NCBI RefSeq assembly: GCF_964204865.1
Contig: NC_135251.1
Location: 23,312,001-23,376,000, forward strand
DNA: 64,000 nucleotides
Reading direction: 5' to 3'
From: Styela clava
Lineage: Eukaryota > Chordata > Ascidiacea > Stolidobranchia > Styelidae
The translations under genes and the position numbers were made by a program. The notes under the pieces are model-generated. The model saw only the letters and a list, made by a program, of their open reading frames with translations. It was not told the origin of the DNA and searched no databases. Positions 44,566-61,964 of the stretch are shown piece by piece. Position 1 is the first letter of the stretch. The number at the start of each line of letters is the position of its first letter.

Positions 44566-44735
44566 GTACCAGGTTAGGGCTAGGCTCAAACCCTATGAGT
44601 GGGTTCGCATCCCGTGGGTGATAAAAATGTGCGAGAGGATTGCTGGACTTCTCGCCACCGCAGGGTGGTTCCCGTGGCTTCCTCCACCATCAAGTCCATG
44701 CTCCGGAAAGCAAATAACTAACTAACTTCGAATTC
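44566..44735 (+). repeat. tRNA-derived SINE, diverged copy
   Basis: Carries GTGGGTTCGCATCCCGTGGG, ATGTGCGAGAGGATTGCTGG and 'CACCATCAAGTCCATGC', all shared with the SINE at 61645. The A-box part is replaced and the 3' end is cut off after CTAACTAAC. Confidence 0.7.
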
Positions 44736-45622: not shown

Positions 45623-46128
45623 AACTTTAATTACTTATTACAATCTGGACTATAATTTGGCAATAATAGGCTCTAATTTGGGGAATGAAATGGTCTCGCG
45701 GCTCTCGCCCATCTCTTCATGCACCCAATTCTGGCAACTTTGGTTGGGCAACTTGGCATTTGACTCCAACTATAACAGTATAATCAGCTTGGCAATATGT
45801 TCTCAATAGAATCTTCCTTTTATATTTTAATTAACGATTAGAAGATCGATCAATTTGGCAATGGCAACCATTACAAAAATATCAATATGGTGTGGCAAAT
45901 AATTTTTTTTTTTTTTCTAGTATTTATTTTTTTGTTTACTGTATAGTATACCCTAAATTTATCATGTTTTATTCTTACTTAAATAACTTCTCAGTGGTTG
46001 TGTGTGTGTGTGGCTGGTGGGTGCATGTAAGCGCAGAAGCGTGTGTGAAATAACCTAATAATTTTAGGTGAGTAAACACGTACCACTTCCTCTTGGCAAA
46101 ACCTTCCATCTTATATTTTGTACGTTAT
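45623..46128 (+). repeat. 506-bp terminal direct repeat, left copy
   Basis: Starts AACTTTAATTACTTATTAC and ends TTTTGTACGTTAT; the same 506 bases recur at 60837-61342. It does not start TG or end CA and is not followed by a primer-binding site. It contains a TATA-like stretch (TTTTATATTTTAATT near 45817), a (GT)n run and a consensus splice donor (TTTTAG|GTGAGT at 46068). I infer a promoter plus untranslated first exon for the transposase-ORF2-env transcript rather than a canonical LTR. Confidence 0.85.
46068..46073 (+). promoter_or_regulatory. Splice donor in the 506-bp repeat
   Basis: AG|GTGAGT at 46067/46068 is a full consensus donor. Joined to the AG at 46357-46358 it removes 291 bp holding several upstream ATGs (near 46261-46312) and makes 46379 the first ATG after the junction. 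Confidence 0.45.
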
Positions 46129-46175
46129 TAGGCGCATGTTCACTAAACAACGTAGCTAATAACTTAACCGACACT

Positions 46176-46233
46176 TTCAATTGTCTAGGGAATACGGACA
46201 ATACATTCAATTGTCTAGGGAATACGGACAATA
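46176..46233. repeat. 28-bp tandem duplication
   Basis: TTCAATTGTCTAGGGAATAC plus 8 more bases occurs at 46176-46203 and again, unchanged, at 46206-46233 (period 30). It sits in the presumed intron ahead of the transposase. Confidence 0.9.
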
Positions 46234-46356
46234 TCTGATACATAAATAATGCTATTAACGATGAATTTCATGCGTCATGAACTAACGATGAGTAGATAAG
46301 AAGAATATAAAATGAATTTAACCACACGAGAAATTGACATTCTGAATTTTATTGAT

Positions 46357-46358
46357 AG
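46357..46358 (+). promoter_or_regulatory. Splice acceptor before the transposase
   Basis: GAATTTTATTGATAG ends 20 bases before the first in-frame ATG (46379). The transposase frame itself opens only at 46346, just after a stop, which fits expression from a spliced RNA. Confidence 0.4.
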
Positions 46359-46378
46359 GTACCGGACCAACCAGCGAT

Positions 46379-47305
46379 ATGAAAATCCGGAGTCTGGCAG
46401 CCCTTGGGGTTTTGTCAAATGTACGAGACTGTATAGGATTCTTGCGGGAACATCGCGTACTCGCCCGCGGCATGAACTGCCCCAAATGTCGAAACGCCAT
46501 GGTAGAAGAAATCAATAAGGCAAACAAGCTCGATGGGGCAAGGTTTAGATGTAGGAAAGCTAATTGCCGTAATACAACGACAATAAGAAAAAACTCGTTT
46601 TTCGAGAGAAGTAAAATCGACCTGGTTAACTTGGTGATATTATTATATTGTTGGGCCATGGATGTATCGCAGAGACAAATCGTATATGAAATAGATGTGA
46701 GTCCCCGTATTGTTGTAGATTGGTTGCATTTCATACGAGAAATATGCTCGACAGAACTCATTCAGAGTTTTAAAAAGATCGGTGGCAAAAAAATGACAGT
46801 CTGCATCGATGAAACGCTGATAGCCAAACGAAAGCCATGCTCAAATTTTAGGGCCCGAAAAATCAAGCCTATTTGGTTGTGGGGGGCTATATGTTTGGAA
46901 ACCAAAGAAATATGTTTGCAATTAGTGCCCGAAACTGGTAGAACTAAAGCTACAATGGAAGAATTGATAAAGGCAAACGTTGCACCACATTCAGAAATTT
47001 GGAGCGATTGTTTTGGGTCCTACAGAGACATAGAAAAGTTGGGAATGGGATACACGCATCGAACAGTGAATCATAGCTTGATGTATGTCACTGATGAGGG
47101 GGTAACCACAAATAGTGTAGAAGGGCTTTGGACTGGAGTGAAAGAAAAATTTAAAAAAATGCATGGGACAAGAAGGGAAATGATCCCGTCTTACCTAGAT
47201 GAATTTCAATGGAGGAGAAGACACCTCCCACACGAACGTTTTGCCAAAATTTTAGAGGCAATAGCGAATAATCCAAAGTATGATGTAAACAGGCTTGAAA
47301 ACTAA
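46379..47305 (+). CDS. Merlin/IS1016-type DDE transposase
   Basis: 308 residues from the first in-frame ATG. The N-terminal part has a zinc ribbon (CPKC, then CRKANC) and a helix-turn-helix-like segment (VSQRQIVYEIDVSPRIVVDW). The catalytic triad of the ISXO2-like/IS1016 family is complete: Asp144 in VCIDETL, Asp210 in IWSDCFGSY and Glu248 in NSVEGLW, with a 37-residue D-E gap as expected for Merlin. Merlin elements are otherwise cut-and-paste DNA transposons with short inverted ends; none are found around this gene, and the next ORF starts only 96 bp later. In the element read as a circle it follows pol, the position of integrase, which Pol lacks. I infer that it performs, or once performed, integration. 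An independent nested Merlin insertion is the main alternative. Confidence 0.9.
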   Translation: MKIRSLAALGVLSNVRDCIGFLREHRVLARGMNCPKCRNAMVEEINKANKLDGARFRCRKANCRNTTTIRKNSFFERSKIDLVNLVILLYCWAMDVSQRQIVYEIDVSPRIVVDWLHFIREICSTELIQSFKKIGGKKMTVCIDETLIAKRKPCSNFRARKIKPIWLWGAICLETKEICLQLVPETGRTKATMEELIKANVAPHSEIWSDCFGSYRDIEKLGMGYTHRTVNHSLMYVTDEGVTTNSVEGLWTGVKEKFKKMHGTRREMIPSYLDEFQWRRRHLPHERFAKILEAIANNPKYDVNRLEN

Positions 47306-47367
47306 AGTAGGAAAGAAAAGAAAAAAAAAAAAAAAAAACTACGTTACAATGTTCATATTACTTTAAC

Positions 47368-47369
47368 AG
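47368..47369 (+). promoter_or_regulatory. Splice acceptor before ORF2
   Basis: TTCATATTACTTTAACAG ends 32 bases before the ORF2 start codon. Confidence 0.4.
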
Positions 47370-47401
47370 AATTAACAATACAATCCTATAAGAGACTTAT
47401 T

Positions 47402-48760
47402 ATGGAAAACACGAATAAAAAAGCTGCATCGGTATTTTTGTTAACAACTACAGCTAACTGGGGAACTACTCAACAAAGAAAACATGTATCGTCACTAATT
47501 GGACCGGATACGAATATAGCCGACATAACGGAGGTGGCTGAACTAATGCTCTTAACTACTCAAATCGTGACGACCTTACAACAGAAGACGAAACAATTAA
47601 AGAAGCAGGCAGAAAAAGGAAGGTTTACTATTGGGTATGTGTTGGATAGCGATCCTACCACGACCCATGAAATAACCACCACAACCACAGACCAAGTCCT
47701 CGAGCCAGAGCCGTCCACAACAACATACGAAATAGCAACCTCAACTACTAATCCAGTGCCAGAGTTTGAGGCAGATTATGGGGAAGAAAGTGATGGAGAA
47801 ATGACGAACCTTGCGTATTCGCCACCAAGCCCTGCCTACTCACCGCCAAGCCTTAAGCACTCGATTACTAGCTGTCCCCCTCCGCTATCGGAGGAAAGTG
47901 ATCTCGACGACATTGATGGAGTGCCCATGGACTATCCGGAAGCGTATTTTGCATGTGAAAAGACAAAACCCTTTGTCGAAATGCCGCTACCGTTACCGGA
48001 TGAAAGTGAGGCCGACGCTACGACCCCGAACAACGAAATACAAGAGGTAGGCGAGATGACTGTAGAAGGAGACTTCAGGTGTCAGGGGGCAATATCCATG
48101 GCAAACCTTATAACCATAACTTCAACTGAGGGGGTTGAGGCTTGGAAGGGAGAGTGTGCTGGACCGTCTAATCGTCCCAACTCTGTGACAAGAGAAGAAA
48201 TATCGCTACCATTATTGACCAGTCGGGAAGAACGTCAGAAACAATTGAGAGAAAGAGTCTATGATTACGTCATCACAGGAAATTGCGAAAGCCACCTACA
48301 TGACATCTGGTGTGGAAAGAGGGAGTCAGATAGACTAACTCAATTCGACAGAGGATTTAGCAATAAAGCCATGCAGCGAGTGTGGGAGGCCGCCTGTGTT
48401 CGTATGTTCTTCAAAGACGAACAGAAACAAGAAAACGTGCTGAGATACCTGAAACAATGTACTGAAATGTTCACTCGATGGGGAGGGACCCGACTCTCGC
48501 GCAGTGAGGCACCTCGCCCAATGAGAACCCGACGGCATACATCTCGTAAGTTCAACCCTTATTCGTTGAGTTATCTTCGACCTAAATCAATGCAATCCTG
48601 CAGCAGCCCCATATGGTCACTAATAAACTATGAACTCGAAACGGATGTGTTATTACCTGAGAGTGTTATATTTGCTATCCAAAAATTATTGAAAGTAGAT
48701 TGCATGGAGGCTGAAAAGATCTACCTACAGTCTCGAAATGGCAATTTCTCAGCGAACTAA
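47402..48760 (+). CDS. ORF2, acidic protein of unknown function
   Basis: 452 residues, ATG start 96 bp after the transposase stop. The N-terminal third is Thr-rich with a short coiled coil (TTLQQKTKQLKKQ). The middle is strongly acidic and Pro/Ser-rich (EESDGE, SEESDLDDIDG, PDESEAD) and includes two heptads like the RNA polymerase II tail, YSPPSPAYSPPS, at residues 139-150. The C-terminal third is basic and helical, with cysteines and a Trp-rich patch (HDIWCGKRESD, FTRWGGTR). No known domain is recognised. Acidic-plus-basic layout and position between integrase-like and env genes resemble viral regulatory proteins, so a transcriptional role is conceivable but unproven. Confidence 0.75.
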   Translation: MENTNKKAASVFLLTTTANWGTTQQRKHVSSLIGPDTNIADITEVAELMLLTTQIVTTLQQKTKQLKKQAEKGRFTIGYVLDSDPTTTHEITTTTTDQVLEPEPSTTTYEIATSTTNPVPEFEADYGEESDGEMTNLAYSPPSPAYSPPSLKHSITSCPPPLSEESDLDDIDGVPMDYPEAYFACEKTKPFVEMPLPLPDESEADATTPNNEIQEVGEMTVEGDFRCQGAISMANLITITSTEGVEAWKGECAGPSNRPNSVTREEISLPLLTSREERQKQLRERVYDYVITGNCESHLHDIWCGKRESDRLTQFDRGFSNKAMQRVWEAACVRMFFKDEQKQENVLRYLKQCTEMFTRWGGTRLSRSEAPRPMRTRRHTSRKFNPYSLSYLRPKSMQSCSSPIWSLINYELETDVLLPESVIFAIQKLLKVDCMEAEKIYLQSRNGNFSAN

Positions 48761-48838
48761 TTGGAACTGTAAATGAAGTAATAATAAAACAGGCATGCCG
48801 TGTTGTACATAACCATGAACTTTTGAATTTTGTTTTAC

Positions 48839-48840
48839 AG
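48839..48840 (+). promoter_or_regulatory. Splice acceptor before env
   Basis: GAATTTTGTTTTACAG ends 47 bases before the env ATG, with a clear pyrimidine tract. Confidence 0.5.
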
Positions 48841-48887
48841 ACTATTGTTAAATAAAAGTTACAAACTAAAAAAAAAAACTAAATGAT

Positions 48888-51299
48888 ATGGCCGGCCCAT
48901 CCTCCGATGAATCCAGAATGGTGCACGTTTTTAATTCTCGTACTAACAATAATTGGGTTGGCGTCGCATTGGGTTTATGTGCTATGGTATTGTTGTCGAG
49001 GGAAAAAGTCTTCTGTGTTATGGGAGAGTTAAATTTGGGCGTGGCCTCGTTGAACGAGGGTACCTTGATCAAGGCGAGTCAATTAAACGCCACGCATTGG
49101 GAACTGACAGATCCATCTACTCCATGGGAACAAATTGATTTAAAAAACTGCTGGAACGTAAGTGACGGCGACAAAGTATATAAAACTCCGGCTCTCTATT
49201 ATTCCTCAAATTTCGGGTATGTGGTTGCGGAAGAGAAAACTTATCAACAACGTAATTATCCCCAGGGAAAATATTGGGAAAGTCCTATCATGCTAGAACG
49301 GGAGTGCCTGTGCAAACGGCGAATTGCCTGGATAAAGCCTGATTTACAACGCTCACTTCTTTATAAAAATCAAACGTATAGGCGACCTATAGGCCAACAT
49401 TTCCGATTTGCATGGCAATGGGCGCCGCAACCAAGCAAAAGGCGCAATAAACACGTCCAAACGATGACCAATCTAATGCTTACGACCTTCACGGCGTATA
49501 AAGCTATGGTGATCCGATTGCTACAATTTTACGCAACAGTCGATGTAACAACTCAAGTCACAAAAGCAATTCAATATCGTGGGACAGAAGGTGGCGTCGA
49601 AGTAATGGATTTTGACAAAGGTATACTTCAGACATTTTTAACTAACTACGTAGACAAACAAGGACTGTCCCCTTACATGAACCGAATTCGGTATCAGTTT
49701 ACCGGGCACGATTTAATATTTGAACCCCTAGAAGGCGATTTTTTAATACAAGAAGTCGATGATGAACATAACAGCGTGTCAATTCGAAACACTACAAAAT
49801 ACGTAGGGGTTCTGAATGAGACCTTCTGGCCGGTATCCACTAACATATGGCCAAGTGATTTTGATTTCCCGGAATGGAATGAGAAAATTAGGTGGATCGC
49901 GCCAACTCATATTGTTAATTGGACTCACGATGGGGAAGTGATACAAAAACATGGACCTATGGTGTTATATGACACCTATCCGTCCATGTTGCACTGGGAC
50001 AGTGAATGTAAGCGACGAATTGAAAGAAATGAACAATGTCAATACCCTGTCGGGAGTATGGAAGTAAAAATGCGGTTCTGGGACGAAACTAAGTATGACC
50101 CTGCTCGCAACCGAACTCAGTTCCCGGCCCCACCTCTTATGCTAAAAGGAGGCAAATGGCCAAGTCGGAACGCGCAAGATCCGCTTAGTGTGCCCGGAAT
50201 AGGAATTCCTGCCCGGAGAAATAAACGCTTTATATTTGAGGCAATAGCTCTAATATTTGCAGGAATAAATTATGCAAACACAAGAACCCTTATTGGCGAA
50301 ATTAACGATCGAATTGACGAAATGACTCGACAGGTGAACACGAGGTTTGCCCAGAATGAAGAGGCCTTAAGACAAGTTGCGTCAAGACTAAATGAATTGT
50401 CCCGATCGACTTTTATTCAGAATCAACGGCTAAGTGAGGTCATCTTTCAAATGGTTAAAGAGCGCGAATTAAGAAGACAGGAATGGAATTTCTTACAGGG
50501 AGAAATTGACCAGAATCAGCGATTATTACTACGGGAGTTGGATACGTTTCTGCATGAATTCCAAACAATCGAAGCCATGTCTGTAGCTGAGTTAGAGGTG
50601 AATCAATTAGTGTTACACGTTTTGAAAAATTCAACGGCAAAACCATTATTTGACAAAACCAAGGCGTATTTAATACGGGTAAAAGATGGTATCCTGCATT
50701 TGAAAGAATACGCCCGACTTCTAACAGCAGTAGAGGAGGAGGCAAACCAAACGATTCAGAACAATGTAAGGCAAGCAGAGGAAATGAGACGTGGTATGCA
50801 AGGCGCAGACAGAGAACTAAACGAAGCCAATGAATTGTGGGTGAGTGGCTTAAACCATTCCCTAATATTAGTAAACACGTCAGAATGGGACTTCGAAAAT
50901 ATATCGGTCGAACACATTAATATGACATTAGATTTAAATTTCACTAACATAGTGGATGAAGCTATGAACCTAGTAAATAAAGGACTCGGAGAAGTCGGGA
51001 ATGTTTTCAAAACCGGGGGGGAGGCGGTAGGAAATTTCTTCGGTGGAATTTTTGGTGGGGTATTCTCGCCTTTCCTAAAAGCATTAATACCGATTGCAAT
51101 CGTGGTTGTGATTCTTATAACAATGTGCTGCTGTATCCAGAATCACCCAAATTGCGCCCCTGTAAAAGCACAGCTGCCGCCTTACTTTCAGACAGGAAGC
51201 CCATTAGGTTGGCGAAATATTGAAAACAGGCAAAAACACCACGAAATAAAGAAAATGATAAAAGACGGTGCCGAAACGGCTGCTATAGCAATATTATAA
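48888..51299 (+). CDS. Envelope-like class I fusion glycoprotein
   Basis: 803 residues. A hydrophobic segment near the N terminus (24-36, VGVALGLCAMVLL) may act as signal or anchor. A furin-type site RRNKR lies at 443-447 and is followed at once by a hydrophobic, fusion-peptide-like stretch (FIFEAIALIFAGI) and by a long heptad-repeat helix (about 465-530). A second helical region precedes a C-terminal membrane segment (about 732-749, ALIPIAIVVVILITM) followed by three cysteines and a ~50-residue tail. Many Asn-X-Ser/Thr sites are spread over the ectodomain. This is the layout of Env/F proteins of retroviruses and errantiviruses; no specific family is recognised. The frame is intact, so the element may form enveloped particles; that is inference. 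Confidence 0.82.
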   Translation: MAGPSSDESRMVHVFNSRTNNNWVGVALGLCAMVLLSREKVFCVMGELNLGVASLNEGTLIKASQLNATHWELTDPSTPWEQIDLKNCWNVSDGDKVYKTPALYYSSNFGYVVAEEKTYQQRNYPQGKYWESPIMLERECLCKRRIAWIKPDLQRSLLYKNQTYRRPIGQHFRFAWQWAPQPSKRRNKHVQTMTNLMLTTFTAYKAMVIRLLQFYATVDVTTQVTKAIQYRGTEGGVEVMDFDKGILQTFLTNYVDKQGLSPYMNRIRYQFTGHDLIFEPLEGDFLIQEVDDEHNSVSIRNTTKYVGVLNETFWPVSTNIWPSDFDFPEWNEKIRWIAPTHIVNWTHDGEVIQKHGPMVLYDTYPSMLHWDSECKRRIERNEQCQYPVGSMEVKMRFWDETKYDPARNRTQFPAPPLMLKGGKWPSRNAQDPLSVPGIGIPARRNKRFIFEAIALIFAGINYANTRTLIGEINDRIDEMTRQVNTRFAQNEEALRQVASRLNELSRSTFIQNQRLSEVIFQMVKERELRRQEWNFLQGEIDQNQRLLLRELDTFLHEFQTIEAMSVAELEVNQLVLHVLKNSTAKPLFDKTKAYLIRVKDGILHLKEYARLLTAVEEEANQTIQNNVRQAEEMRRGMQGADRELNEANELWVSGLNHSLILVNTSEWDFENISVEHINMTLDLNFTNIVDEAMNLVNKGLGEVGNVFKTGGEAVGNFFGGIFGGVFSPFLKALIPIAIVVVILITMCCCIQNHPNCAPVKAQLPPYFQTGSPLGWRNIENRQKHHEIKKMIKDGAETAAIAIL

Positions 51300-51539
51300 A
51301 TATAAATCTAGGTAAATTGTCAAAGACTCTCGGAATAAATTGCAAACCCCCAGTGACGCCCAAAACTTCCTGGACTTGATGAAAATCGAATACGTCATGA
51401 CCTTTATAAAATTGCGCAACGCGACCATATAAGGTAGCGATGCTTGATCCCTCGAGAATTGAAGTTTAAAATACACCCATCAGATGTGTTATAAGGTGAC
51501 CAATATTGGCCTGAAAAAGTCAGTCAACATCGGGCATCC

Positions 51540-51845
51540 ATGGCAAACGAATATCAATTACTGTATACAACCAGCAAAAGACTTGGAAATATTCAACAAG
51601 CAACCGAAACAAATGGAACTTATACAACTCAGCCTACATATCAGAAAGATGTTGAGAACTCAACTGCAACTTCTATCCAGACTCAAGCATTAAAAGAATA
51701 TCATACGAACAACCTTCAACTAAATGGACTCACTGGTGATGTTACAAATTTATTAAGTTTTCATCCGAACTTTAATTCATTAATCAGAATCTTTCGATTA
51801 AAAGAACGGTTATTGAATGATTATATAGATACAAACTCAGAATGA
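51540..51845 (+). CDS. Small ORF downstream of env
   Basis: 101 residues, rich in Thr, Asn and Gln, with a leucine-containing C-terminal half (NNLQLNGLTGDVTNLL). No signal peptide, membrane segment or known domain. An overlapping frame (51484-51693) is open over part of it. It could be an accessory gene of the element or chance. Confidence 0.3.
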   Translation: MANEYQLLYTTSKRLGNIQQATETNGTYTTQPTYQKDVENSTATSIQTQALKEYHTNNLQLNGLTGDVTNLLSFHPNFNSLIRIFRLKERLLNDYIDTNSE

Positions 51846-52081
51846 CTTTGGTAAACTTTGAAAACGTAGATTATGTTTGAAGTTAATTGTATAATTTTTT
51901 ACTAGAACTGTAGAACTGTTGAGACCTATAAAGAATTGTAGGGATTTATTAAACAAATTATGTGAAATAAGGAAAGTTACCTAATTCAGATATGTTTTAA
52001 TTTTCGAAATTATATGAGAATTTTAGGCAGAGCCTGGGAATGCACAATCCTCCAATTGCCTTACATAATAAAAATTAATAT
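51846..52081. other. Spacer between the small ORF and the LTR-like region
   Basis: AT-rich, no ORF. No convincing polypurine tract; GAAATAAGGAAAG near 51964 is the most purine-rich stretch. Confidence 0.3.
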
Positions 52082-53673
52082 TGTTATGGGACATAGGAAA
52101 TCACAAACAGTTGACGTATTGTCAAAATTTTCCCACATTGAGTTTCAGGAAATTGTTGGCTGATCGTAAAGTACATGGTGCTATGCTATATTTTGCAAAC
52201 CTGATATTGCCTTATCAAATGGTTATTAAATTTATGGGAAAATAGATTTTGCACGTCGTGAGAATTGGCAGAGAATTAAATATTTTCCATCAACGCTGCA
52301 AAGTTATTATCTCGTAAAAAGCTGGATAATCCCTTAAGAGCCCAAGAAAACATGTTTTCCCATGGATAATCACTAATGCATTGCTGAAGTTCCCAGATAG
52401 GAAATTTATAAATAGATTCAGCTGCGTTGGTTTAATGGCTTCCGTAACTTGTATTCCCATGACTCCCAGTTATTAAAAAATTCTTTGCAAATGACTCATG
52501 TATAACCAAGTATATTTGAAGTTTGTTATTTTTTCTTATTCCATTTACCTTTGTAACTGGCTCTGACGTATGGTGTTTTATTATTATTGGTATATTTTCA
52601 TTGATTAATAGTTAATGTAATATCATGTAATCATGAGATCAAGGATGATCGTGGGACTTATATTAAAAGTTATGCTAGAGCATATTTGCCAGGCGGAACT
52701 TAATATAGGAAATAACATAGATCATGTATGGACATAGTGTATTATAGTGACCACGGAAGTAATACGCATTTATGATATTACGTCATTCAAACATGGGATG
52801 CCCAAGTTTGGTTGGTCAGTAAAAATAAAATAATAAATAAATAGACCACACGAATGTATTGTGGAATTACACAATAAGCTTAAAGGAATAATTGTAACGA
52901 CTTATGCTCACCATTGACAATAATGTAAATGTAATTGTAGTTTATTATCATTATTGTTTATATTTTTATTGTGTTGGTATACTCAACATTTGATTTTATA
53001 TTACCCTATATACTTATGTAACTTGTTTATTATTATATGAATGAAAATTGTAAGTTTGAACCTTTAATTAATGAACTAACCGGACGTTTGACTTACTCAT
53101 ACGATAAGCCGGTGCCCTTCGTAACAGAGAAATTCCTAAGGAAAGACTTGAAGCCTTCTCATGTACTTATATTATGATGAGTCGTAAACCTTAGTTATTT
53201 TTATTAATTATATAGTGGAAGTTATAACCACATACTTAATGTGACTATTTAATGGTGCTGTTTCAATTTGTACATTAAAACCCATAAAAAATAATAAAAG
53301 AAACAGCTAAAAATTCTTGATACAAACCAATACCATTGATCGCCGCATCTAAAACAAAATGGCGGCCACAAAGGAAAAACAAAATGGCGGCCACAAAAAA
53401 AAAACAAAATGGCGGATACGTGTAACTTATGTTTTTTTGAAATTGTTAAGACATCGAAACTTTAAAATAAGATTTGACTATACTAGTTGAGAATTTTTTG
53501 AACATTGATGTCTTTGTATGTTGCTAATAATGTATGATGTTTATCTCATATATTTTTTTGGAATTATTTTGTCCTAGACAACGATAATGAACCCAAGAGT
53601 AATCAAGGGCAAATTGAATGTACCCCACCCCCTGTGGGGTGTGTTTAATTAAACCCCAAAAATCTCTATAACA
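52082..53673 (+). repeat. LTR-like region, single internal copy
   Basis: The right border is placed by the primer-binding site: the sequence ends CTATAACA, three bases before it. The left border is tentative: TGTTATGG at 52082 is a 7-of-8 inverted match to that end, as in TGTTA...TAACA LTRs. An alternative start is TGTAACGA near 52893, preceded by a short purine tract. No long ORF. Triple ATGGCGG sites, a TATA-like CATATATTTT near 53547 and a GC-rich hairpin (CCCCACCCCCTGTGGGG) lie in order towards the right end, as in a U3-R-U5. It occurs once in the window. Confidence 0.5.
53352..53416 (+). promoter_or_regulatory. Three tandem ATGGCGG (YY1-like) sites
   Basis: ACAAAATGGCGG occurs three times at about 26-bp spacing, twice followed by CCACAAA. 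AANATGGCGGC is the strong binding site of the transcription factor YY1 in animals. Position in the presumed U3 suggests an enhancer; binding itself is inference. Confidence 0.6.
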
Positions 53674-53676
53674 TAC

Positions 53677-53694
53677 TGGGGGCTTCGTCTCGGT
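53677..53694 (+). promoter_or_regulatory. Primer-binding site, tRNA-Pro-like
   Basis: TGGGGGCTTCGTCTCGGT follows the CTATAACA border after three bases. It resembles the tRNA-Pro primer-binding site used by many gammaretroviruses (TGGGGGCTCGTCC...): eight bases match, then one extra T, then CGTC. It fixes reverse-transcription start here and not at the 506-bp repeats. Confidence 0.6.
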
Positions 53695-54863
53695 CTTTCT
53701 ATTTTTTAACCGGGGGAGGGAATGTTTGTTTGCGGGTAGTAACGCACCGTGTTAGGTGGGCATAGCGGAAGCCAATGCTGGGAGGGGCCTTGACGGTCTA
53801 AAGGAAATTCCTGATAGAAGCCCTGCACTGAACTCGAGTGTTGTTTTTTATGCAACAATACACCCCATGCCCCGTGTTGAGAATATTAAGGAACTATACT
53901 GAAACTATCTACAAATGTGCATGTTGTATTTTTTTTAATACTTCGCAAATATGATCAAGTGTTTTTCAGTATAAATTTGAAATAGGTTACCGTATTAAAT
54001 GTGTGCATCACTTTAAAAAAAAAATAGGATATATGGTGTCTGACACGTTATATTGTTTTGTTTATATATTATTTAATGATCTGGGATCAAGGCACCGTAA
54101 TAAGGGTGTTCAGTGGGAAACTAACATTGGTTACGGGGAGCCTGACGGTCTATGGTTAATTCCTGATAGGCGCTTTGCTTTTGACCCAACGTTATAGTTT
54201 TGAAAAACAGTATAATGATGTTAAGATATCTTATATCATATTCCGAATTTTATCTTAAGTGTGTTATGCTATTTTAAGAAATTTGTATTGTGTTTATAAC
54301 AATTTTTATGATGCAAAAACAAATTAGTAAATCATTTTATCGTATTTAAAATGTTAAATGTGTGTTAGTATGGTTATATTGTATTTTATTTATTTATATA
54401 ACTGTACTAACATTGGAGTATTTGGTTGTATTAAGATTTAGGCTACGTACTAGGCTTAGGAAAACTTGGGTCGTTCTGAGACCCAAGTCGAAGAAGACAA
54501 CAAGGAAGGGAACGTTTCGAGCCAAATAAGCAAAAACAAAATCCTGTCGGGACTGGCAAAAGAATTGCGTACAACCAAAACGAAAAAAGAAAAAGCAGAG
54601 AGGTAGACTCCAATCGAAAGAGAACGAGGCAACAAACGACCCTTACAACAAGCGGCAAGATAAAAAGGGAATCGTAAAATTGCAAGTAATTTTTATATTA
54701 ATAACGAATAGTTAACCAGCCACTTCACTCAATAACAACGGAAAAAGCGGAATACCAGTCCAGAGAACCAGTCCGAGAAGAGTAACGCCAAGAAGATTTG
54801 GCACTGCATGTATACAATAACAATAATATAACGTTAAATATTTAAAGTAATTAAGGACTAACA
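53695..54863 (+). other. Leader of the gag-pol transcript
   Basis: 1.17 kb between primer-binding site and gag. It holds two related blocks, 53744-53817 and 54092-54169, each running from GCACCGT to GACGGTCTA and TTCCTGATAG, about 350 bp apart. Such a conserved duplicated block in a leader could be a packaging or translation signal. The stretch 54430-54800 is more purine-rich and has no upstream ORF of note. Confidence 0.55.
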
Positions 54864-57749
54864 ATGCCCAATTGGTTTAGTCGAAAAAAAGGGGAGGCGT
54901 CCCGTGAACAAACTAAACTTAATAACAAAATGAAATTAATAAAGCATACCCAAGAAAGACATAAAGAGGTTAGCGCCACTGAAAAAAAGCTTAAGCAAGA
55001 TATACTTGATAAACAAAAACTATTTACTCAAATACAAAAAGACCTTCCCCATGCCAAAAAAGAACTTAAACAGGCAACGAAAGATGTAAAAATGGCCCAG
55101 AACGATTTAGCAGCCATTGAAAAAGCAGCAAAGAAAGCCAGCGCAAAAATCACGATGGAAGAACTTCAAGGTGTACTCAAAAACGAATACAATGCTGGAA
55201 AGTTATACAAAATGTCTACCAGTGAAGCAGACGTCACGAAGTCATATTCAGTGGCTGTTGAACCGTCGGCACCACCGTCTTCAGAACCACCATCATACCC
55301 CGCCACACTTGTTTCCAGAACACCCACGATGAATTCCTGGCCAATTCACCCAGATACCCCAAATGGCCCAAGGTTGGTTGTGAAAAAGGGACTAGACCAT
55401 CAAGAAATAGAAACTATATACCCCAGGTTGCAACATGAAATGGCCGCTTACCCGATTGGAATCGAAGGTGTAGATGTGGTCAGCAATAAAAGGATACGTC
55501 AAGGACGATTATTAACTACACCAGGCGAGGATCCCTACGGAGTTAAAATGCTGTACTCACAAAGGGCGCAGCTTATACCGCCTCCTGTTTTCTCCACTCC
55601 AGCAGACGAAAGGTCAGCAATAATAAATAGAAGACGGTTGGGATTGAATTCAAGAACAGCCAGAGGTGACGGGAAAGGTCCCTATCAAGAGGCAGAAATA
55701 ACAACGCCTCAAATGGTAATACCGGCTCCCGATTATACAAAAGCTAAAGAACTAAGCTCCATAAGGTTGGGACCAAGTCCAAAAAAATATCCCACCGTAC
55801 GCTTAACTCGAGGAAGGCAAAGAAGGGCGCAGCTAAAAAATGGAGTGCTGACGAGAACTGAATTGTCTCGTTCGCCATCGTCAGAAACAAGACCAGTTTC
55901 TCAAGAATTCTCCCTGCAAGGAGGCCCAAAATTTGACGTGATATCCCTTGCCAATGGACAGTTCTTGCAACAAGACCCAGAGTTTCAGCGATCCTTGCAA
56001 GCGGACCCGAATTTGGACTTATCAAGTAATACCGAGACTCCTTCATCATCATCGTCGTCCGAAGAAGAAGAACGGTATGCTCAAAGACCATCGCAGCCGA
56101 ATTTCGTCAAAATTACACAACCACCGTACCAACCCTTGGCTACTTCTTCCAAACCCATGAACGTGGACGAAATGATGGCTATCATGAAGAATCCTGGGAG
56201 ATTAAATCTATTGAAGTGGCTAGAAGACGCGATGACATTTATCGAACATGGTCCAGGCGACACAATAAGGGACAGAATACTGGCCAACGCGATACAAAAG
56301 AAGCTAATTGAAGCGAACCGCCGAGAGGATGCAGAACAAATAGCCGATTTGTTTGACGTACCTCGCCCTAATTGGAAAACAGTCATGGAATTGTTGGCGG
56401 TAACTCATCCACAAGGCATCGCTAACAACGAGAAGGTGATAAATGACTTTGCCTTAAATTATAGTTGGAAAGAAAGGCCCATGCTCGCTATACATGGGGT
56501 ATTACGAGAAATGGATATTGATATCGATGAACAAATTATGGCCGATCCAGATGGCATGCGCCTGTTCAGAAATCTCAGAGCAAAACTTCCCCAAACATTG
56601 CGAATTTTGCTACAAGGACGAGAACATTTCACCTGGAGAAATGTGGCGACAGATCTACAAAAATTCTGGAACTCTGAACTATTAGATGACCAAACCGTAA
56701 GAGTAACAAATAAGATGGATCGGTATTCCAGAACCTCTTCGTATCCAGTAACTTCGATGCCAGCACTACAACAAACATATACACCACCTCCGGTAAACGT
56801 ATATAATATCCAGCCGGCGATGGAAAAAACATTGCGCCAAACACCCTATGAAGAAGGTAACAAAAGGCTTTTGCACGCATACGTTGGGTCTACTAAAGAG
56901 TTCCCCACTGATGTCCAAAGTAATCAATTATTAAGTAATAGAATGATGAACCCTCCAGGTGTTTCGGGTGGCCAAACGACAAGGAGCAATGAAGCACCTA
57001 ATCTACGTGAGAGAGCCACTCTACCAAGAAAAGCGAAAGAAAAAGCCAAGCCGTGGAAGCGAAAAGAGCGTTACGCGAATCCACGAAACACGCCACCTCG
57101 CGAAGAGACATCAGAGCAACAAATTTCTCCTCAACGCCAGCAGTTAACCCAACAAGAAACAACTCCAAGTAGCATAGGCGAAGCCGCAAGAATAGCGGAA
57201 ACACAAGGTGAGCCATACAATTTCTTGAGTCAGTCCAACATCTTTGAACCATTAGGACTGTACATTTCACCTGAAAATGGTCAATCTTTATCAGTCTGCT
57301 ACTTGTGTAAAAGTCCTGGTCACATTTCAAGCTCGTGTCTGGTTAAAGCTATATTGTGGGTCACGGATAAGGTCCTGGGAAAGGATGAACAGGGAAGTTG
57401 GGTAATCAAGCCGCGAACAAGAAAACTGCCAGACAATTTGCGACGAGAATGCAAGGAAAAATGGTCCGATTTCCTAGGCGGCAATAATCCATTAGCACTT
57501 CCATTGCGCGACATTGATGACCTAAACAAATACCTCATATCTCAAGGGTCCCCAACATTAGAAAAAAGGGCAAATCTGTGTGAGCTATACTTTGGATTTA
57601 GACCCAAAAGCCGAGATAAAACTCATTGGCAGAATAGGACGCATTGGAACTTGCCACTTACCCAAACTAAAACAGCTCCTTGCTATTATGTCCAACATGG
57701 TTGGACTGAACATGATATGCAACAAGGACTAAACTCATCTTTAAACTAG
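54864..57749 (+). CDS. gag: Gag polyprotein
   Basis: 961 residues from ATG 54864. The N terminus is basic and forms a long coiled coil (about 15-100). Two late-domain motifs follow close together: PSAP (134-137), the TSG101-binding type, and PPSY (142-145), the NEDD4-ligase type; both recruit budding machinery in retroviruses. A Ser/Glu-rich linker (SSSSSSEEEE) precedes the capsid-like helical region (about 430-610, starting MNVDEMMAIMKNPG). The C-terminal part has a basic stretch (RKAKEKAKPWKRKER) and one CCHC zinc knuckle, Cys812, Cys815, His820 and Cys825. Ends UAG directly after a -1 frameshift heptamer. An intact Gag with late motifs fits particle formation. Confidence 0.9.
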   Translation: MPNWFSRKKGEASREQTKLNNKMKLIKHTQERHKEVSATEKKLKQDILDKQKLFTQIQKDLPHAKKELKQATKDVKMAQNDLAAIEKAAKKASAKITMEELQGVLKNEYNAGKLYKMSTSEADVTKSYSVAVEPSAPPSSEPPSYPATLVSRTPTMNSWPIHPDTPNGPRLVVKKGLDHQEIETIYPRLQHEMAAYPIGIEGVDVVSNKRIRQGRLLTTPGEDPYGVKMLYSQRAQLIPPPVFSTPADERSAIINRRRLGLNSRTARGDGKGPYQEAEITTPQMVIPAPDYTKAKELSSIRLGPSPKKYPTVRLTRGRQRRAQLKNGVLTRTELSRSPSSETRPVSQEFSLQGGPKFDVISLANGQFLQQDPEFQRSLQADPNLDLSSNTETPSSSSSSEEEERYAQRPSQPNFVKITQPPYQPLATSSKPMNVDEMMAIMKNPGRLNLLKWLEDAMTFIEHGPGDTIRDRILANAIQKKLIEANRREDAEQIADLFDVPRPNWKTVMELLAVTHPQGIANNEKVINDFALNYSWKERPMLAIHGVLREMDIDIDEQIMADPDGMRLFRNLRAKLPQTLRILLQGREHFTWRNVATDLQKFWNSELLDDQTVRVTNKMDRYSRTSSYPVTSMPALQQTYTPPPVNVYNIQPAMEKTLRQTPYEEGNKRLLHAYVGSTKEFPTDVQSNQLLSNRMMNPPGVSGGQTTRSNEAPNLRERATLPRKAKEKAKPWKRKERYANPRNTPPREETSEQQISPQRQQLTQQETTPSSIGEAARIAETQGEPYNFLSQSNIFEPLGLYISPENGQSLSVCYLCKSPGHISSSCLVKAILWVTDKVLGKDEQGSWVIKPRTRKLPDNLRRECKEKWSDFLGGNNPLALPLRDIDDLNKYLISQGSPTLEKRANLCELYFGFRPKSRDKTHWQNRTHWNLPLTQTKTAPCYYVQHGWTEHDMQQGLNSSLN

Positions 57750-57784
57750 TACGGAAGTTGTCTGATCCGGTGCGGCAACTTCCG
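57740..57784 (+). promoter_or_regulatory. -1 ribosomal frameshift signal between gag and pol
   Basis: TTTAAAC at 57740-57746 is in the gag frame as T TTA AAC, followed by the gag stop TAG. After a 5-nt spacer comes a perfect 9-bp stem, CGGAAGTTG (57752-57760) with CAACTTCCG (57776-57784), loop 15 nt. Pol is open in the -1 frame from 57716. Heptamer, spacer and stem agree with known -1 frameshift signals of coronaviruses and retroviruses. Confidence 0.92.
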
Positions 57785-60781
57785 GATAAAGTGGTACCTT
57801 GTAAATATGAAAAAATCATAAACAATGAAACCTTACCTCTATTCACCTTTTTGGGAAAACCGGAAAAAACTGACGGTATAAGCCTTACCGATGTATTTGG
57901 AGGTGAATTGATGTATTTAAGGGATATCAAAACTGGAACTATGTTCCTTGCAGACACGGGTAGTTTGCCTAACTTAATGACAAGGCAAACCGCCGAAAAA
58001 TCTTATCCCAATAGTTGGAAAAACCGTCAACCTTTTACAGTGAATGTAAGGGGAATAGGAGGAACTTGCCAAATTAATTCCTTGATGATTATAAACATGG
58101 GAGAGCTCAAAGTTCCATTTGCAACGGGACAGGGCATACCATTAAACATAATTGGGTTCAAATGGTTGGGACCGGTGCAAGCCTTAACGACGATGGTCAC
58201 GGAGATGAACAATCCATCGTCATGTATGAGCAATTTAGTTATGACAGCCGGTGAACCAGAGGGTGACGATCCTCTGGAATGTACCGAGGCGGGGAAACAG
58301 CGCGCAAGGCCTAACAGTGGTATTGGCTTGCGAAACACTAATGACCGAGAACGAAGTTTCAGGGGTCAAAAATCCGAACGAGCTAGTAGAAAGCCAGATT
58401 CGGACCCCCGGGGTGAAGCACGAAGTGCAAGAAAATCATCCGTCATACCTATATCAAACGAAAGAGTTGTCATGAAAGGACCAGTGAACGAATACGTGTT
58501 GAAAAAGGGAACACCGCACAAAGTAAAAAGCGAACTGCAGAAGCTCAGCGACGAAGCGATAGCTCTTGCTGGGGAAACTTACGTCCCGCCTGAACTCAAT
58601 TCACCAGAAAACACAGTAATAACAGAAAAAGAATGGAGGCAAGTGTATCAACCTTATGCCAAAGAGTTGGAAGATCTGAGGGGTCATTTATCGTCTAAAC
58701 AAGAACTGAAATATCCGTGTCACATCGAACTAAAAGATCCCACTGTAAAACCCTTTGTCTCAGGACCATACAACCTGAGAGGAAAAGAACAATCAGAAGC
58801 TCTCGAAGAAGCCGTAAAAAACTTTCTAGATCTCGGAGTAATAGAGACTGGATTTGCGGAATGGAAATTGGCAATATTTGTGGTACCGCAAAAAATGAAC
58901 GAACGACAAAAGCAAGAAACTGGCTGGCAACAATCATGGAGGGTGGTGCAAAATCTCCAACCATTGAATGCTGCCATCAAATCTATTGAAATCGCCCCAG
59001 CGTTAATCCCCGATATTAAGCAAATGGCGCAAGGAAGAGAGGTCTTGTCACTCCTTGATTTAAAAAAGGCATACTTTCATTGTGATGTAGTTGAAGACAG
59101 TAGGACCTTTTTGGGCATAGCGGTCAAAGGTCAACATCTACGCTGGCGAAAACTCCCGATGGGACTTAAGACCGCCGTGGCCCTCTTCTCAGCTAATATG
59201 CAAGCTTGCGTCGTAGAACCTATTACAGCTCTATATCGAAAACACATGAATAATTGCAAGCGGCTTGACGAGGTAAAGGCCTCACCTATAGAAGCATACA
59301 TTGACGATATATTTCTGAGTACCAAAACTGTGGAGGATCATCTAATACTGCTTCAAATAACCTTTGAACAATTAGCTAAAATGAAATTAACGCTCAGCAT
59401 AAACAAATGTTTTATCGGAAAAAGACGAATTAATCTACTTGGTGCGACATTGAGCGGTAAGAAAATAGAAGTACAACCAGAACGATTGAGGGCCTTGAAA
59501 GAATTGACTCCGCCGCGTAATGTATACGAATTAAGGGGTTGGATTGGAGCCCTACGCTACATTGCAGATCATATCCCGAAACTTAGCTTAAAACTGGCAA
59601 AATTTGATGCTCTAACGGGAAACGTTCCGGCTACGCGCGGAAGGGTTACACCAGTGTTATGGACTAAAGAACTATTGGAAGATTATAAAGTCGCTAGAGA
59701 GCAGCTGAATAGCGCGGAGGTCTTGTATCACATAAATCCTGATCTCCCGTTGTTTGTGGAAACAGATGCCTCCGAAAACGGGTTTGGAGCAATTATATTT
59801 CAAACAAACAAAGAAGAAGAACCGCCCTTTACCTCAGTCTACCCAATAGCATACTACAGCCAGAAGTGGAATACGCCTGCGGCAAGGGCATACGATCCCT
59901 GCACGAAGGAACTTAAGGCCCTAAAACAAACTTTGGATAAGTGGCTATCGATCTTACACACTATGCCCTTTACAGTTATAACAGATAACATGGGAGTTTT
60001 TGGCTTGCTAAAGCGAATGAAAGACAATGCAAAAAACCCCAGCCCGCGCATGCTAATTCAACGCTGGCTGAATCATATATCTGGGTTCCAAATAACTAAA
60101 GTAATACATCGAACTACAAGGGAGGTATTTACGTCAGATGGTTTGTCTCGTTCGTTCTGGCTTGAGATGGCATTCACGCCCAAAGAAACTGGCGCGTGGG
60201 CCATACCTGAAACGACAACGAAAAAAGAAGGGGAGAAGCTCGCTGTACGAGAGAAAAAAGAAAAAATTCAACGCGTCTTGATAGCTCATTGCAGACATAC
60301 AGATTGTCCTGTCGCAAAGGAAGGTTTTCATTCTTGGCAGCATTTACAGGAAGTACTACAGGAACAGAGTGGCATTAACTGCGACGTAATGTACATCCAA
60401 GAGGTAATGCGAGATAGCGAAAGGGCTATTGTAACTAAGGATGGGCTAGCAGCAGCTTATGGGCACACGCGGGGAACGACGCCACAATACAATGAATATA
60501 CTGGTAATGAAACACTATATCATGTGACGCGCGTGGAAAACCTAAACTCTATATGGCAAATTGGGTTGGAATCGCGAGGACGAAAGTATATTCATCTCAG
60601 CAGAAAACCGAAATACAAGGTTCGAGGAAAACGGGTGGAAATTTCAGTTAAGCCAGCTGCGCTTAGAAAGGCAGGGTTCCTGATAATAAAAACACCTAAT
60701 CCAAACGTGTTGCTATGCGAAGGACCTATCCCAAGGGACTTGATGAACGTCAGAACCCAATCTCTGAGGACGTCGCTTTAA
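57746..60781 (+). CDS. pol: Pol: protease, reverse transcriptase, RNase H, Tpt1-like domain
   Basis: Made by -1 frameshift from gag; no ATG near its start. Numbering from codon 57758 as 1. Retropepsin active site DTG at 66-68. The reverse transcriptase spans about 300-620, with LDLKKAYF, LPMGLKTA and the catalytic YIDD at 514-517. RNase H follows (about 665-800) with ETDAS, CTKELKAL, ITDNMG and SDGLSRS. An integrase would come next in Ty3/gypsy elements and retroviruses; there is no HHCC finger or DDE core. Instead residues ~820-1007 resemble RNA 2'-phosphotransferase Tpt1/KptA: FHSWQHLQEVL, AYGHTRG (His903), LYHVTR (His922) and GRKYIHLS (Arg942, His946). Tpt1 removes a splice-junction 2'-phosphate from tRNA using NAD+. 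Its role here is unknown. Confidence 0.9.
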   Translation, partial: LVRKLSDPVRQLPDKVVPCKYEKIINNETLPLFTFLGKPEKTDGISLTDVFGGELMYLRDIKTGTMFLADTGSLPNLMTRQTAEKSYPNSWKNRQPFTVNVRGIGGTCQINSLMIINMGELKVPFATGQGIPLNIIGFKWLGPVQALTTMVTEMNNPSSCMSNLVMTAGEPEGDDPLECTEAGKQRARPNSGIGLRNTNDRERSFRGQKSERASRKPDSDPRGEARSARKSSVIPISNERVVMKGPVNEYVLKKGTPHKVKSELQKLSDEAIALAGETYVPPELNSPENTVITEKEWRQVYQPYAKELEDLRGHLSSKQELKYPCHIELKDPTVKPFVSGPYNLRGKEQSEALEEAVKNFLDLGVIETGFAEWKLAIFVVPQKMNERQKQETGWQQSWRVVQNLQPLNAAIKSIEIAPALIPDIKQMAQGREVLSLLDLKKAYFHCDVVEDSRTFLGIAVKGQHLRWRKLPMGLKTAVALFSANMQACVVEPITALYRKHMNNCKRLDEVKASPIEAYIDDIFLSTKTVEDHLILLQITFEQLAKMKLTLSINKCFIGKRRINLLGATLSGKKIEVQPERLRALKELTPPRNVYELRGWIGALRYIADHIPKLSLKLAKFDALTGNVPATRGRVTPVLWTKELLEDYKVAREQLNSAEVLYHINPDLPLFVETDASENGFGAIIFQTNKEEEPPFTSVYPIAYYSQKWNTPAARAYDPCTKELKALKQTLDKWLSILHTMPFTVITDNMGVFGLLKRMKDNAKNPSPRMLIQRWLNHISGFQITKVIHRTTREVFTSDGLSRSFWLEMAFTPKETGAWAIPETTTKKEGEKLAVREKKEKIQRVLIAHCRHTDCPVAKEGFHSWQHLQEVLQEQSGINCDVMYIQEVMRDSERAIVTKDGLAAAYGHTRGTTPQYNEYTGNETLYHVTRVENLNSIWQIGLESRGRKYIHLSRKPKYKVRGKRVEISVKPAALRKAGFLIIKTPNPNVLLCEGPIPRDLMNVRTQSLRTSL

Positions 60782-60836
60782 ACGATCAAAGTGTGTGATA
60801 ACTAAACCGGACTACGTTGGAAGGTGAACTAGAGCC

Positions 60837-61342
60837 AACTTTAATTACTTATTACAATCTGGACTATAATTTGGCAATAATAGGCTCTAATTTGGGGAAT
60901 GAAATGGTCTCGCGGCTCTCGCCCATCTCTTCATGCACCCAATTCTGGCAACTTTGGTTGGGCAACTTGGCATTTGACTCCAACTATAACAGTATAATCA
61001 GCTTGGCAATATGTTCTCAATAGAATCTTCCTTTTATATTTTAATTAACGATTAGAAGATCGATCAATTTGGCAATGGCAACCATTACAAAAATATCAAT
61101 ATGGTGTGGCAAATAATTTTTTTTTTTTTTCTAGTATTTATTTTTTTGTTTACTGTATAGTATACCCTAAATTTATCATGTTTTATTCTTACTTAAATAA
61201 CTTCTCAGTGGTTGTGTGTGTGTGTGGCTGGTGGGTGCATGTAAGCGCAGAAGCGTGTGTGAAATAACCTAATAATTTTAGGTGAGTAAACACGTACCAC
61301 TTCCTCTTGGCAAAACCTTCCATCTTATATTTTGTACGTTAT
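60837..61342 (+). repeat. 506-bp terminal direct repeat, right copy
   Basis: Starts 55 bp after the pol stop and matches 45623-46128 in length and, as read by eye, in sequence. Its internal donor (near 61282) points into flanking host DNA. In the intact circle this would be the single stretch between pol and the transposase. Confidence 0.88.
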
Positions 61343-61644: not shown

Positions 61645-61964
61645 CGGCGGTGTGGCTCAACGGGCTAAGCGTTAGGAATACGCTCGCCACCGCACCTCTA
61701 ATTACTCTGCGTGGGTTCGCAGGTTCGAATCCCATGCAGTGATGGTCATGTGCGAGAGGATTGCTGGACTCCTCGCCGTCGCTGGGTCCTCCACGACTTA
61801 CTCCACCACCAAGCCCATGCTTCCGAAAACAAACAATATAACTAATCCCATATCCGACTTGAAATAGTAACCGGACGAGAGGCCGTGGTTCGCCATATGG
61901 ATAAGTCGTCTTATCAACTTTCCTCTCCCTCGGGATAAATATGTAAATCCTATCCTATACAGTA
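61645..61964 (+). repeat. tRNA-derived SINE, best-preserved copy
   Basis: Has both RNA polymerase III promoter boxes: A box TGGCTCAACGGG (61653-61664) and B box GGTTCGAATCC (61722-61732). A ~230-bp tRNA-unrelated body follows, ending GGGATAAATATGTAAATCC. Partial copies lie at 7566, 9890 (minus), 36755, 38890, 42838 and 44566, so this is a family and not a single tRNA gene. No acceptor-stem pairing with a CCA-compatible end is visible. Confidence 0.88.

What the first reader, a model, noticed from the sequence alone, without database searches (positions are those of the whole stretch)
46379..60781. Retrovirus-like element that appears to use a Merlin DDE transposase in place of integrase
Seen: Pol has protease, reverse transcriptase and RNase H but no integrase, while the same 15.7-kb unit carries an intact transposase with a full D144-D210-E248 triad and zinc ribbon. 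Known: Merlin/IS1016 enzymes are cut-and-paste DNA transposases; LTR elements use integrase, and DIRS and Ngaro use tyrosine recombinase. Inferred: the transposase took over integration. Read as a circle it sits just after pol, where integrase would be. A nested Merlin transposon is unlikely, as no inverted ends are seen and only 96 bp separate it from ORF2.
Basis: partly seen in the sequence, partly recalled or inferred. Interest (0 to 1): 0.95.

Follow-up and report, generated by a model that had tools for sequence, protein, structure and literature searches.

The report
Integrase-less retroelement with Merlin transposase
An animal genome carries related families of virus-like elements that have retrovirus-type genes (gag, reverse transcriptase, an envelope-like protein) but no integrase in the copies examined, and whose ends and target duplications are those of a cut-and-paste DNA transposon of the Merlin type, whose transposase gene they also carry; the papers searched describe no such combination.

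Summary
The 506-bp repeats flanking the 15.7-kb unit are not LTRs: seven other copies in the same 377-Mb genome match the window only from 46131 (one from 46129), and the six near-identical ones end at 60836-60838, giving a 14.7-kb unit. It ends in inverted repeats; 6 of 8 copies with both ends read have an exact 8-bp target duplication, as Merlin transposons do. It encodes a Merlin/IS1595 transposase, an accessory protein, an envelope-like protein, Gag, and Pol with protease motif, RT, RNase H and a Tpt1/KptA-like domain, without integrase. All 7 full-length family-A pol copies sit at the 7 near-identical transposase loci. Of 10 further transposase loci fetched, 4 carry gag-pol and 4 Env (3 both), in the same order; 3 of 4 families scanned show inverted ends plus 8-bp duplication. 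One ordinary Ty3/gypsy control from this genome has an integrase. Replacement of integrase by a Merlin transposase is thus well supported structurally. Not shown: that reverse-transcribed DNA is what gets inserted; cargo on a DNA transposon is the main rival.

The parts
46131..46155 (+). left terminal inverted repeat; true left end of the element
   Evidence: 6 of 7 other family-A loci match the window from 46131, one from 46129; 18/25 complementary to the right end
46379..47305 (+). Merlin/IS1595-type DDE transposase, 308 aa
   Evidence: PF12762 3.8e-16, NF033547 1.1e-23; triad and zinc-ribbon cysteines conserved in families A, B, C; model pLDDT 83.8, best PDB folds retroviral integrases, also ISCth4 transposase, at low TM-scores
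47402..48760 (+). ORF2, 452 aa accessory protein with PWP3A-B_C match
   Evidence: PF20886 2e-11; family B has an ORF with the same Pfam match (8.4e-7) located after Env
48888..51299 (+). envelope-like protein, 803 aa; basic RRNKR site at 50214-50228, hydrophobic segment near the C terminus
   Evidence: 37-40% identical open counterparts in families B and C keep R-x-K-R and the hydrophobic C-terminal segment; no Pfam match above cut-off and no significant PDB match (best E 0.12)
51540..51845 (+). small ORF, 101 aa, unassigned
   Evidence: no Pfam match
51300..54863 (+). region upstream of gag without long ORFs
   Evidence: longest listed ORF 101 aa; colinear conserved blocks with family C
52576..52893 (+). 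block about 88% identical to the family C non-coding region; possible promoter
   Evidence: function inferred only
54412..54440 (+). 29-nt block shared by families A, B and C upstream of gag (cis signal, function unknown)
   Evidence: 100% A-B over 29 nt, E 2.6e-9; nearly identical in C
54864..57749 (+). gag, 961 aa, CCHC knuckle about 57294-57338
   Evidence: zf-CCHC E 0.005, below cut-off; also E 0.0042, below cut-off, in family C gag
57758..60781 (+). pol, 1007 aa, open from 57716 and overlapping the gag end in the -1 frame; no integrase match
57953..57961 (+). DTG protease motif
   Evidence: ADTGS invariant in A, B, C
58928..59452 (+). reverse transcriptase (YIDD)
   Evidence: PF00078 4.1e-16
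59660..60085 (+). RNase H
   Evidence: PF17919 8.7e-20, PF17917 1.1e-16
60305..60721 (+). Tpt1/KptA RNA 2'-phosphotransferase-like domain after RNase H
   Evidence: PF01885 2e-6, in B 7.6e-7, in C 2e-9; PDB RNA 2'-phosphotransferase matches
60812..60836 (-). right terminal inverted repeat; true right end of the element
45623..46128 (.). 506-bp flanking repeat, left copy; NOT part of the element
   Evidence: identical to 60837-61342 but absent beside the 7 other copies aligned
60837..61342 (.). 506-bp flanking repeat, right copy; NOT part of the element
   Evidence: absent at the right end of the 6 near-identical other copies

Best explanation
The unit 46131-60836 is a reverse-transcribing, probably enveloped, virus-like element of an animal genome that has no integrase and uses its own Merlin/IS1595 DDE transposase to enter chromosomes. 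Shown: the whole unit (transposase, accessory ORF, envelope-like gene, gag, PR-RT-RH-KptA pol) ends in inverted repeats, is repeated at several sites with 8-bp target duplications, and the gene set and order recur in diverged families. Inferred: Gag and Pol package and reverse-transcribe an RNA copy, the envelope-like protein allows spread between cells, and the transposase brings the two ends together and inserts the DNA with an 8-bp stagger. Also inferred: the inserting form is a circle in which the two ends abut, because read round that junction the order is gag-pol-transposase-accessory-env, the retroviral order with the transposase where integrase would be.
For: All 7 full-length family-A pol copies pair with the 7 near-identical Tpase copies. 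Copies share ends at 46131/60836; exact 8-bp duplications at 6 of 8 copies with both ends read. Families B, C, D: inverted ends (18, 21, 19 of 25) plus 8/8 duplications. B and C open for Tpase, Env and pol, C also for gag. Protein differences far below synonymous ones, pN/pS 0.39-0.45 for Tpase, 0.31-0.43 for pol, 0.50-0.55 for Env, synonymous change mostly saturated. Genes co-diverge in D, E, F. No integrase match in A, B or C pol against H2C2 + rve in one Ty3/gypsy control of the same genome. Proteins 99% (Tpase) and 100% (Env, first 489 residues bar one) identical come from an ENA contig of 12,025 bases, by its length the same contig. A 29-nt block before gag is kept in A, B, C.
Against: No direct evidence that this RNA is reverse-transcribed: no primer site identified, and the search for abutting ends did not complete. 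From a linear integrated copy a full gag-to-env RNA cannot be made without a circle or a tandem copy, so the replication route is unexplained. 5 of 10 further Tpase loci show no Env, gag or pol in the 20 kb fetched. Pairwise order is not fully congruent: pol A-C 62% > A-B 51%, Tpase A-B 52% > A-C 45%. Window and C8 copies lack the 8-bp duplication; the family E scan found no ends. The envelope-like protein has no recognised relative.
Confidence: 0.7

Rival explanations
1. A giant Merlin DNA transposon that long ago captured gag, pol and an envelope-like gene as cargo. It moves only as DNA by cut-and-paste; the retroviral genes make particles or serve some other use, but reverse transcription is not part of its movement.
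For: Ends, 8-bp duplications and transposase are Merlin-like; the linear gene order cannot give a full retroviral RNA from one integrated copy; Teratorn (piggyBac + herpesvirus, PMC10175614, passages read) is a precedent for a virus on a cut-and-paste transposon.
Against: Protease motif, RT (YIDD) and RNase H are kept in three families with protein change well below synonymous change, which idle cargo would not show; the order is retroviral when closed into a circle; a 29-nt block before gag is kept.
Confidence: 0.22
2. Chance nesting: an ordinary Merlin transposon inserted in an endogenous retrovirus, or the reverse.
For: Merlin elements are widespread on their own (PMC8101967, passages read).
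Against: No inverted pair with both arms in the spacers beside 46379-47305; same arrangement in 7 of 7 full-length family-A copies and in families B, C, D at about 45-52% transposase identity; the duplications lie at the ends of the 14.7-kb unit.
Confidence: 0.02
3. A 15.7-kb LTR element whose 506-bp terminal repeats are its LTRs.
For: Perfect 506-bp direct repeats at both sides.
Against: The 7 other family-A loci aligned lack them; no duplication of 4 or more bases at their exact outer ends, only 4-5 base matches at shifted positions; ends are not TG..CA.
Confidence: 0.01
4. Assembly artefact joining viral and transposon contigs.
For: The window copy alone has an odd 506-bp flanking duplication instead of an 8-bp one.
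Against: Same unit at separate sites on contigs C1, C2, C3, C6 and C9 with different flanks and exact 8-bp duplications, and Tpase with Env in an ENA contig of 12,025 bases.
Confidence: 0.01

Closest known systems
Merlin superfamily DNA transposons (IS1016/IS1595 relatives)
   Same: DDE_Tnp_IS1595 transposase of about 300 aa, DDE triad, inverted ends, 8-bp target duplication
   Different: Merlin elements are, as I recall, small transposase-only units (PMC4202319 passage: inverted ends and a transposase coding sequence of 880 bp on average); here 10-15.8 kb with gag, pol and an envelope-like gene
Ty3/gypsy (Metaviridae), incl. env-bearing errantiviruses
   Same: Gag with CCHC knuckle, PR-RT-RH order; the 21 proteins found for pol are of this kind by their Pfam domains, at 21-27% identity
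   Different: no integrase, no LTRs, 8-bp instead of 4-6 bp duplications, extra KptA-like domain
Caulimoviridae (plant pararetroviruses)
   Same: PR-RT-RH without integrase; chain 8r0s ('Enzymatic polyprotein', recalled as cauliflower mosaic virus RT) is the best solved-structure match; gene order makes sense as a circle
   Different: animal host, envelope-like gene, copies with exact ends and target duplications, own transposase
DIRS/Ngaro/VIPER tyrosine-recombinase retroelements
   Same: RT element in which another recombinase replaces integrase
   Different: DDE transposase with inverted ends and 8-bp duplication instead of a tyrosine recombinase
Teratorn (piggyBac transposon fused with a herpesvirus)
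   Same: virus genome mobilised by a cut-and-paste transposase (PMC10175614, passages read)
   Different: herpesvirus DNA genome and piggyBac, not a reverse-transcribing element and Merlin

Membership tests
Merlin superfamily | DDE_Tnp_IS1595 transposase with DDE triad | tested here: met
Merlin superfamily | terminal inverted repeats | tested here: met
   18-21 of first 25 bases in families A-D; none found for E
Merlin superfamily | 8-9 bp target duplication | tested here: met
   6 of 8 family-A copies and families B, C, D; not found in E
Merlin superfamily | small transposase-only element (recalled) | tested here: not met
   10-15.8 kb with gag, pol and envelope-like gene
Ty3/gypsy LTR elements (Metaviridae) | RT-RNase H of the Ty3/gypsy kind | tested here: inconclusive
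   proteins found are Ty3/gypsy-type at 21-27% but long branch in tree and 8r0s, not Ty3, best in PDB
Ty3/gypsy LTR elements (Metaviridae) | integrase (H2C2 + rve) in Pol | tested here: not met
   no match in A, B, C; present in control L036
Ty3/gypsy LTR elements (Metaviridae) | long terminal repeats and 4-6 bp duplication | tested here: not met
Retroviridae | gag and PR-RT-RH pol | tested here: met
Retroviridae | env homologous to retroviral env | tested here: inconclusive
   basic site and hydrophobic segment kept in A, B, C but no recognised relative
Retroviridae | integrase and LTRs | tested here: not met
Caulimoviridae | PR-RT-RH Pol without integrase | tested here: met
Caulimoviridae | circular dsDNA genome | not testable with these tools
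   a search for abutting ends in the genome was asked and never answered; it would have been indirect at best
DIRS-like elements | tyrosine recombinase | tested here: not met
   no such Pfam match in the six ORFs of A or the nine ORFs of B and C given

The most novel reading that the evidence does not exclude
A temperate pararetrovirus of animals: the integrated copy is excised by the Merlin transposase as a circle with abutting ends; round-the-circle transcription from the non-coding region gives a gag-pol-transposase-env RNA with redundant ends; this is packaged, reverse-transcribed to circular DNA, carried in enveloped particles and re-inserted by the transposase with an 8-bp stagger. It would be a separate, deeply distinct way of being a reverse-transcribing virus.
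Probability: 0.4. Interest if true: 0.98.

Novelty: categorically new. Interest (0 to 1): 0.95.

Why it matters
The virus-like retroelement groups named in Kojima 2025 (PMC12440569; outline, abstract and passages seen) carry an integrase, use a tyrosine recombinase (DIRS), lack an integration enzyme (hepadna-, nackedna- and caulimoviruses; this part recalled) or have an unresolved mechanism (HEART). Arkhipova 2017 (PMC5718144, passages seen) asked whether undescribed combinations of polymerase and integrase types can be found. This looks like one: RT + Merlin transposase + envelope-like gene, kept across diverged families. It makes directly testable whether integrase is replaceable, how an RT genome works with a cut-and-paste enzyme, and whether animals have integrating pararetroviruses.

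Tried and rejected
506-bp repeats as LTRs: rejected, absent from the 7 other copies aligned. Nested Merlin: no fitting inverted pair around the transposase. Relatives in viral contigs for pol and Tpase and in genome contigs for Tpase: none. Ordinary solo Merlins among the other Tpase loci: a scan of 5 loci (L022, L026, L028, L032, L034) gave no exact 8-bp duplication with inverted ends, best 7/8 with 13-14 of 20. Env fold from one sequence: pLDDT 36, useless. Env profile against PDB: nothing significant, best E 0.12. ORF2 against PDB: nothing. Rfam: none at gathering thresholds; two sub-threshold matches in 51300-54900 taken as chance. Primer-binding site by comparison with the host's tRNAs: not done, the tRNA search did not complete. 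Own-genome searches for Env and for the 506-bp repeat: not answered. Literature: ten searches (one search was for Merlin properties) in an open-access PMC library without preprints; in three of them more papers matched than were listed. No listing showed such an element; five papers were opened (PMC5718144, PMC10175614, PMC4202319, PMC8101967 as passages; PMC12440569 as outline, abstract and passages).
Full report
What is in the window. Between 46131 and 60836 lie, all on the + strand, a Merlin/IS1595 transposase (46379-47305), ORF2 (47402-48760), an envelope-like protein (48888-51299), about 3.5 kb with no ORF over 101 aa, gag (54864-57749) and pol (57758-60781). Pfam gives DDE_Tnp_IS1595, PWP3A-B_C in ORF2, a weak CCHC knuckle in gag, and RVT_1, two RNase H models and RNA 2'-phosphotransferase (Tpt1/KptA) in pol; there is no integrase match. 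NCBIfam places the transposase above its IS1595 cut-off.

The borders. I noticed an inverted repeat just inside them (18 of 25 bases; reached by 1 of 50,000 anchored random pairs from the element; a free local-alignment test was not significant, 0.08). The own genome (G000, 376.6 Mb, 379 contigs) then settled it. One search gave 52 transposase matches. The eight best rows (L001, the window, and L002-L008) were aligned: of the 7 others, 6 match the window from 46131 and one from 46129, and none has the 506-bp repeat. On the right, the six near-identical others stop at 60836-60838. The element is thus 14,706 bp and bounded by inverted repeats.

Target duplications. Of 8 family-A copies with both ends read, 6 have an exact 8-bp duplication: C1 ggaagtcc, C3 ccgtacgg, C6 aataccgg, C9 agcacatg, C2 (second copy) gatttgta, C6 (second copy) tataatac. 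The window copy has the 506-bp duplication instead and the decayed C8 copy has none. Recombination between two nearby insertions, aberrant transposition or a haplotype switch in assembly could explain the window copy; this was not resolved. Merlin elements make 8- or 9-bp duplications, with inverted ends of 23-29 bp in most families of one species and 39 bp in another (PMC8101967, passages seen).

Linkage. In one search only 45 of 601 candidates were scored, so counts are lower bounds. All 7 full-length open family-A pol copies lie at the loci of the 7 near-identical transposase copies, on the same strand, 14,394-14,400 bp from transposase start to pol end in six, and 13,640 bp in the C1 copy, which lacks about 750 bp inside ORF2. 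Six of these 7 have an open transposase; in the second C6 copy it is split into two frames. An eighth, decayed copy (C8) has stops in both genes. The six near-identical copies are 99.2-99.9% identical to the window over the transposase side and 99.6-99.9% over the pol side, so the family moved recently.

Diverged families. I fetched 20 kb round 10 further transposase loci out of those. Four of 10 carry gag and pol (B on C9, C on C19, D on C1, E on C13); B, C and D also Env; F on C8 has transposase and Env without gag or pol in the stretch; two have ORF2-like pieces only (L022, L028); three show transposase alone (L026, L032, L034). Where several genes are present their order is transposase, Env, gag, pol. 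B and C are open for transposase (331, 305 aa), Env (836, 840 aa) and pol (1021, 1044 aa), and C for gag (869 aa); B gag crosses my locus border and was not joined. D and E are decayed. A scan for duplication plus inverted ends gave a best pair about 210-360 bp before the transposase and 30-160 bp after pol in 3 of 4 families tried: B aatatttt, C gatccaaa, D ggatattt; E gave none. Because the scan looks for both features over many positions, weaker pairs (8/8 with 11-13 of 20) also turn up by chance; the accepted pairs have 15-17 of 20, begin GGG, and lie just outside the genes. The first 25 end bases match 18, 18, 21 and 19 times in A, B, C, D. B and D ends resemble each other, as do their genes.

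Constraint and co-divergence. Between A, B and C, pN against pS is 0.33-0.38 against 0.83-0.85 (transposase), 0.25-0.35 against 0.78-0.81 (pol), about 0.41 against 0.73-0.82 (Env), and 0.36 against 0.80 for gag A-C; synonymous change is mostly saturated. D is nearest B in transposase (0.91), pol (0.92), Env (0.76) and ORF327 (0.80); F is nearest C in transposase (0.80), Env (0.94) and ORF275 (0.91); E is nearest A. Against full congruence: pol groups A with C (62% against 51%), transposase A with B (52% against 45%); recombination between halves or unequal rates could do this.

Proteins. Transposase: D144, D210, E248 and four zinc-ribbon cysteines kept in A, B, C; the model (pLDDT 83.8) finds retroviral integrases and the ISCth4 transposase among its best PDB folds, at TM-scores of about 0.2-0.35 on the query, so this shows no more than a shared RNase H-like fold. 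Pol: DTG, YIDD and the RNase H acidic positions (recalled as catalytic) are invariant in A, B, C; the KptA-like domain keeps RH, GH, YH and R..IHL motifs, but the arginines just before the GH motif of the solved enzymes are alanines in the window protein, so catalysis is uncertain. Env: R-x-K-R site and hydrophobic C-terminal segment kept in A, B, C; the only database match is an identical stretch of 489 residues (one difference, then divergent) on a contig of 12,025 bases, the same length as the contig of the 99% transposase match, so presumably one contig. Control: one Ty3/gypsy pol from the same genome shows H2C2 and rve integrase domains with the same scan. Other pol-lineage pieces were not checked for integrase.

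Placement of RT. The large protein search, which scored 7,999 candidates, gave 21 proteins at 21-27% identity, of Ty3/gypsy kind by their Pfam domains, 13 of 21 with rve. PDB searches rank 8r0s ('Enzymatic polyprotein', recalled as cauliflower mosaic virus) first, ahead of Ty3 and Pr125Pol (recalled as foamy virus). In an 18-row tree of RT-RNase H (14 of the 21 hits, 7 dropped for shorter matches; L036; A, B, C) the three elements form one group (100/100) on a long branch. Its deeper place is open.

How it may work. Read as a circle closed at the ends, the order is gag-pol-transposase-accessory-env, as in a retrovirus with the transposase in the integrase place. Gag and pol overlap in the -1 relation in A, and the same relation follows from the coordinates for B and C. 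A 29-nt block before gag is shared by A, B and C, and a block of about 319 nt upstream is 88% alike between A and C although their proteins are 40-62% alike, which suggests cis signals or exchange. From this I infer a circular DNA form, transcription from the non-coding region, reverse transcription, and insertion by the transposase. None of these steps was observed. The search for joined ends in the genome did not complete.

Novelty. Ten full-text searches showed no such element in their listings; the library lacks preprints and most subscription papers. The virus-like retroelement groups named in the passages I saw of Kojima 2025 include none with a Merlin-type enzyme.

Noticed in passing
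window 45623-46128 and 60837-61342: A 506-bp perfect duplication flanks this one copy in place of an 8-bp one; each copy holds TGGCAA 7 times. Origin unexplained.
   Followed up: partly
window 60305-60721; L017 and L019 pol C termini: A Tpt1/KptA RNA 2'-phosphotransferase-like domain sits at the end of Pol in three families; one paper search with Tpt1 and retroelement terms gave a single unrelated genome paper.
   Followed up: partly
window 47402-48760; L016:6935-7918: Accessory proteins match the C-terminal domain of PWWP3A/B (PF20886), at different places in families A and B.
   Followed up: no
window 52576-52893 against the L018 non-coding region: About 319 nt are 88% identical between families A and C, far more than their coding regions.
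   Followed up: partly
window 737-5693: Tandem array of a 371-bp unit, 13.4 copies.
   Followed up: no
window about 61650-61900, 38909-39173, 44602-44725, 9989-10079, 7571-7654: A dispersed SINE-like repeat occurs several times in the window, on both sides of the element.
   Followed up: no
L032 about 6272-7030 (minus strand): A diverged Merlin-like frame (about 30% identity, open) with no fitting inverted ends found and, by eye, the second aspartate region altered; possibly domesticated.
   Followed up: no
window 15489-16625 and 17185-17469: ORFs resembling SUMF1 and THG1 (recognised by eye, not searched), the host genes I could recognise.
   Followed up: no
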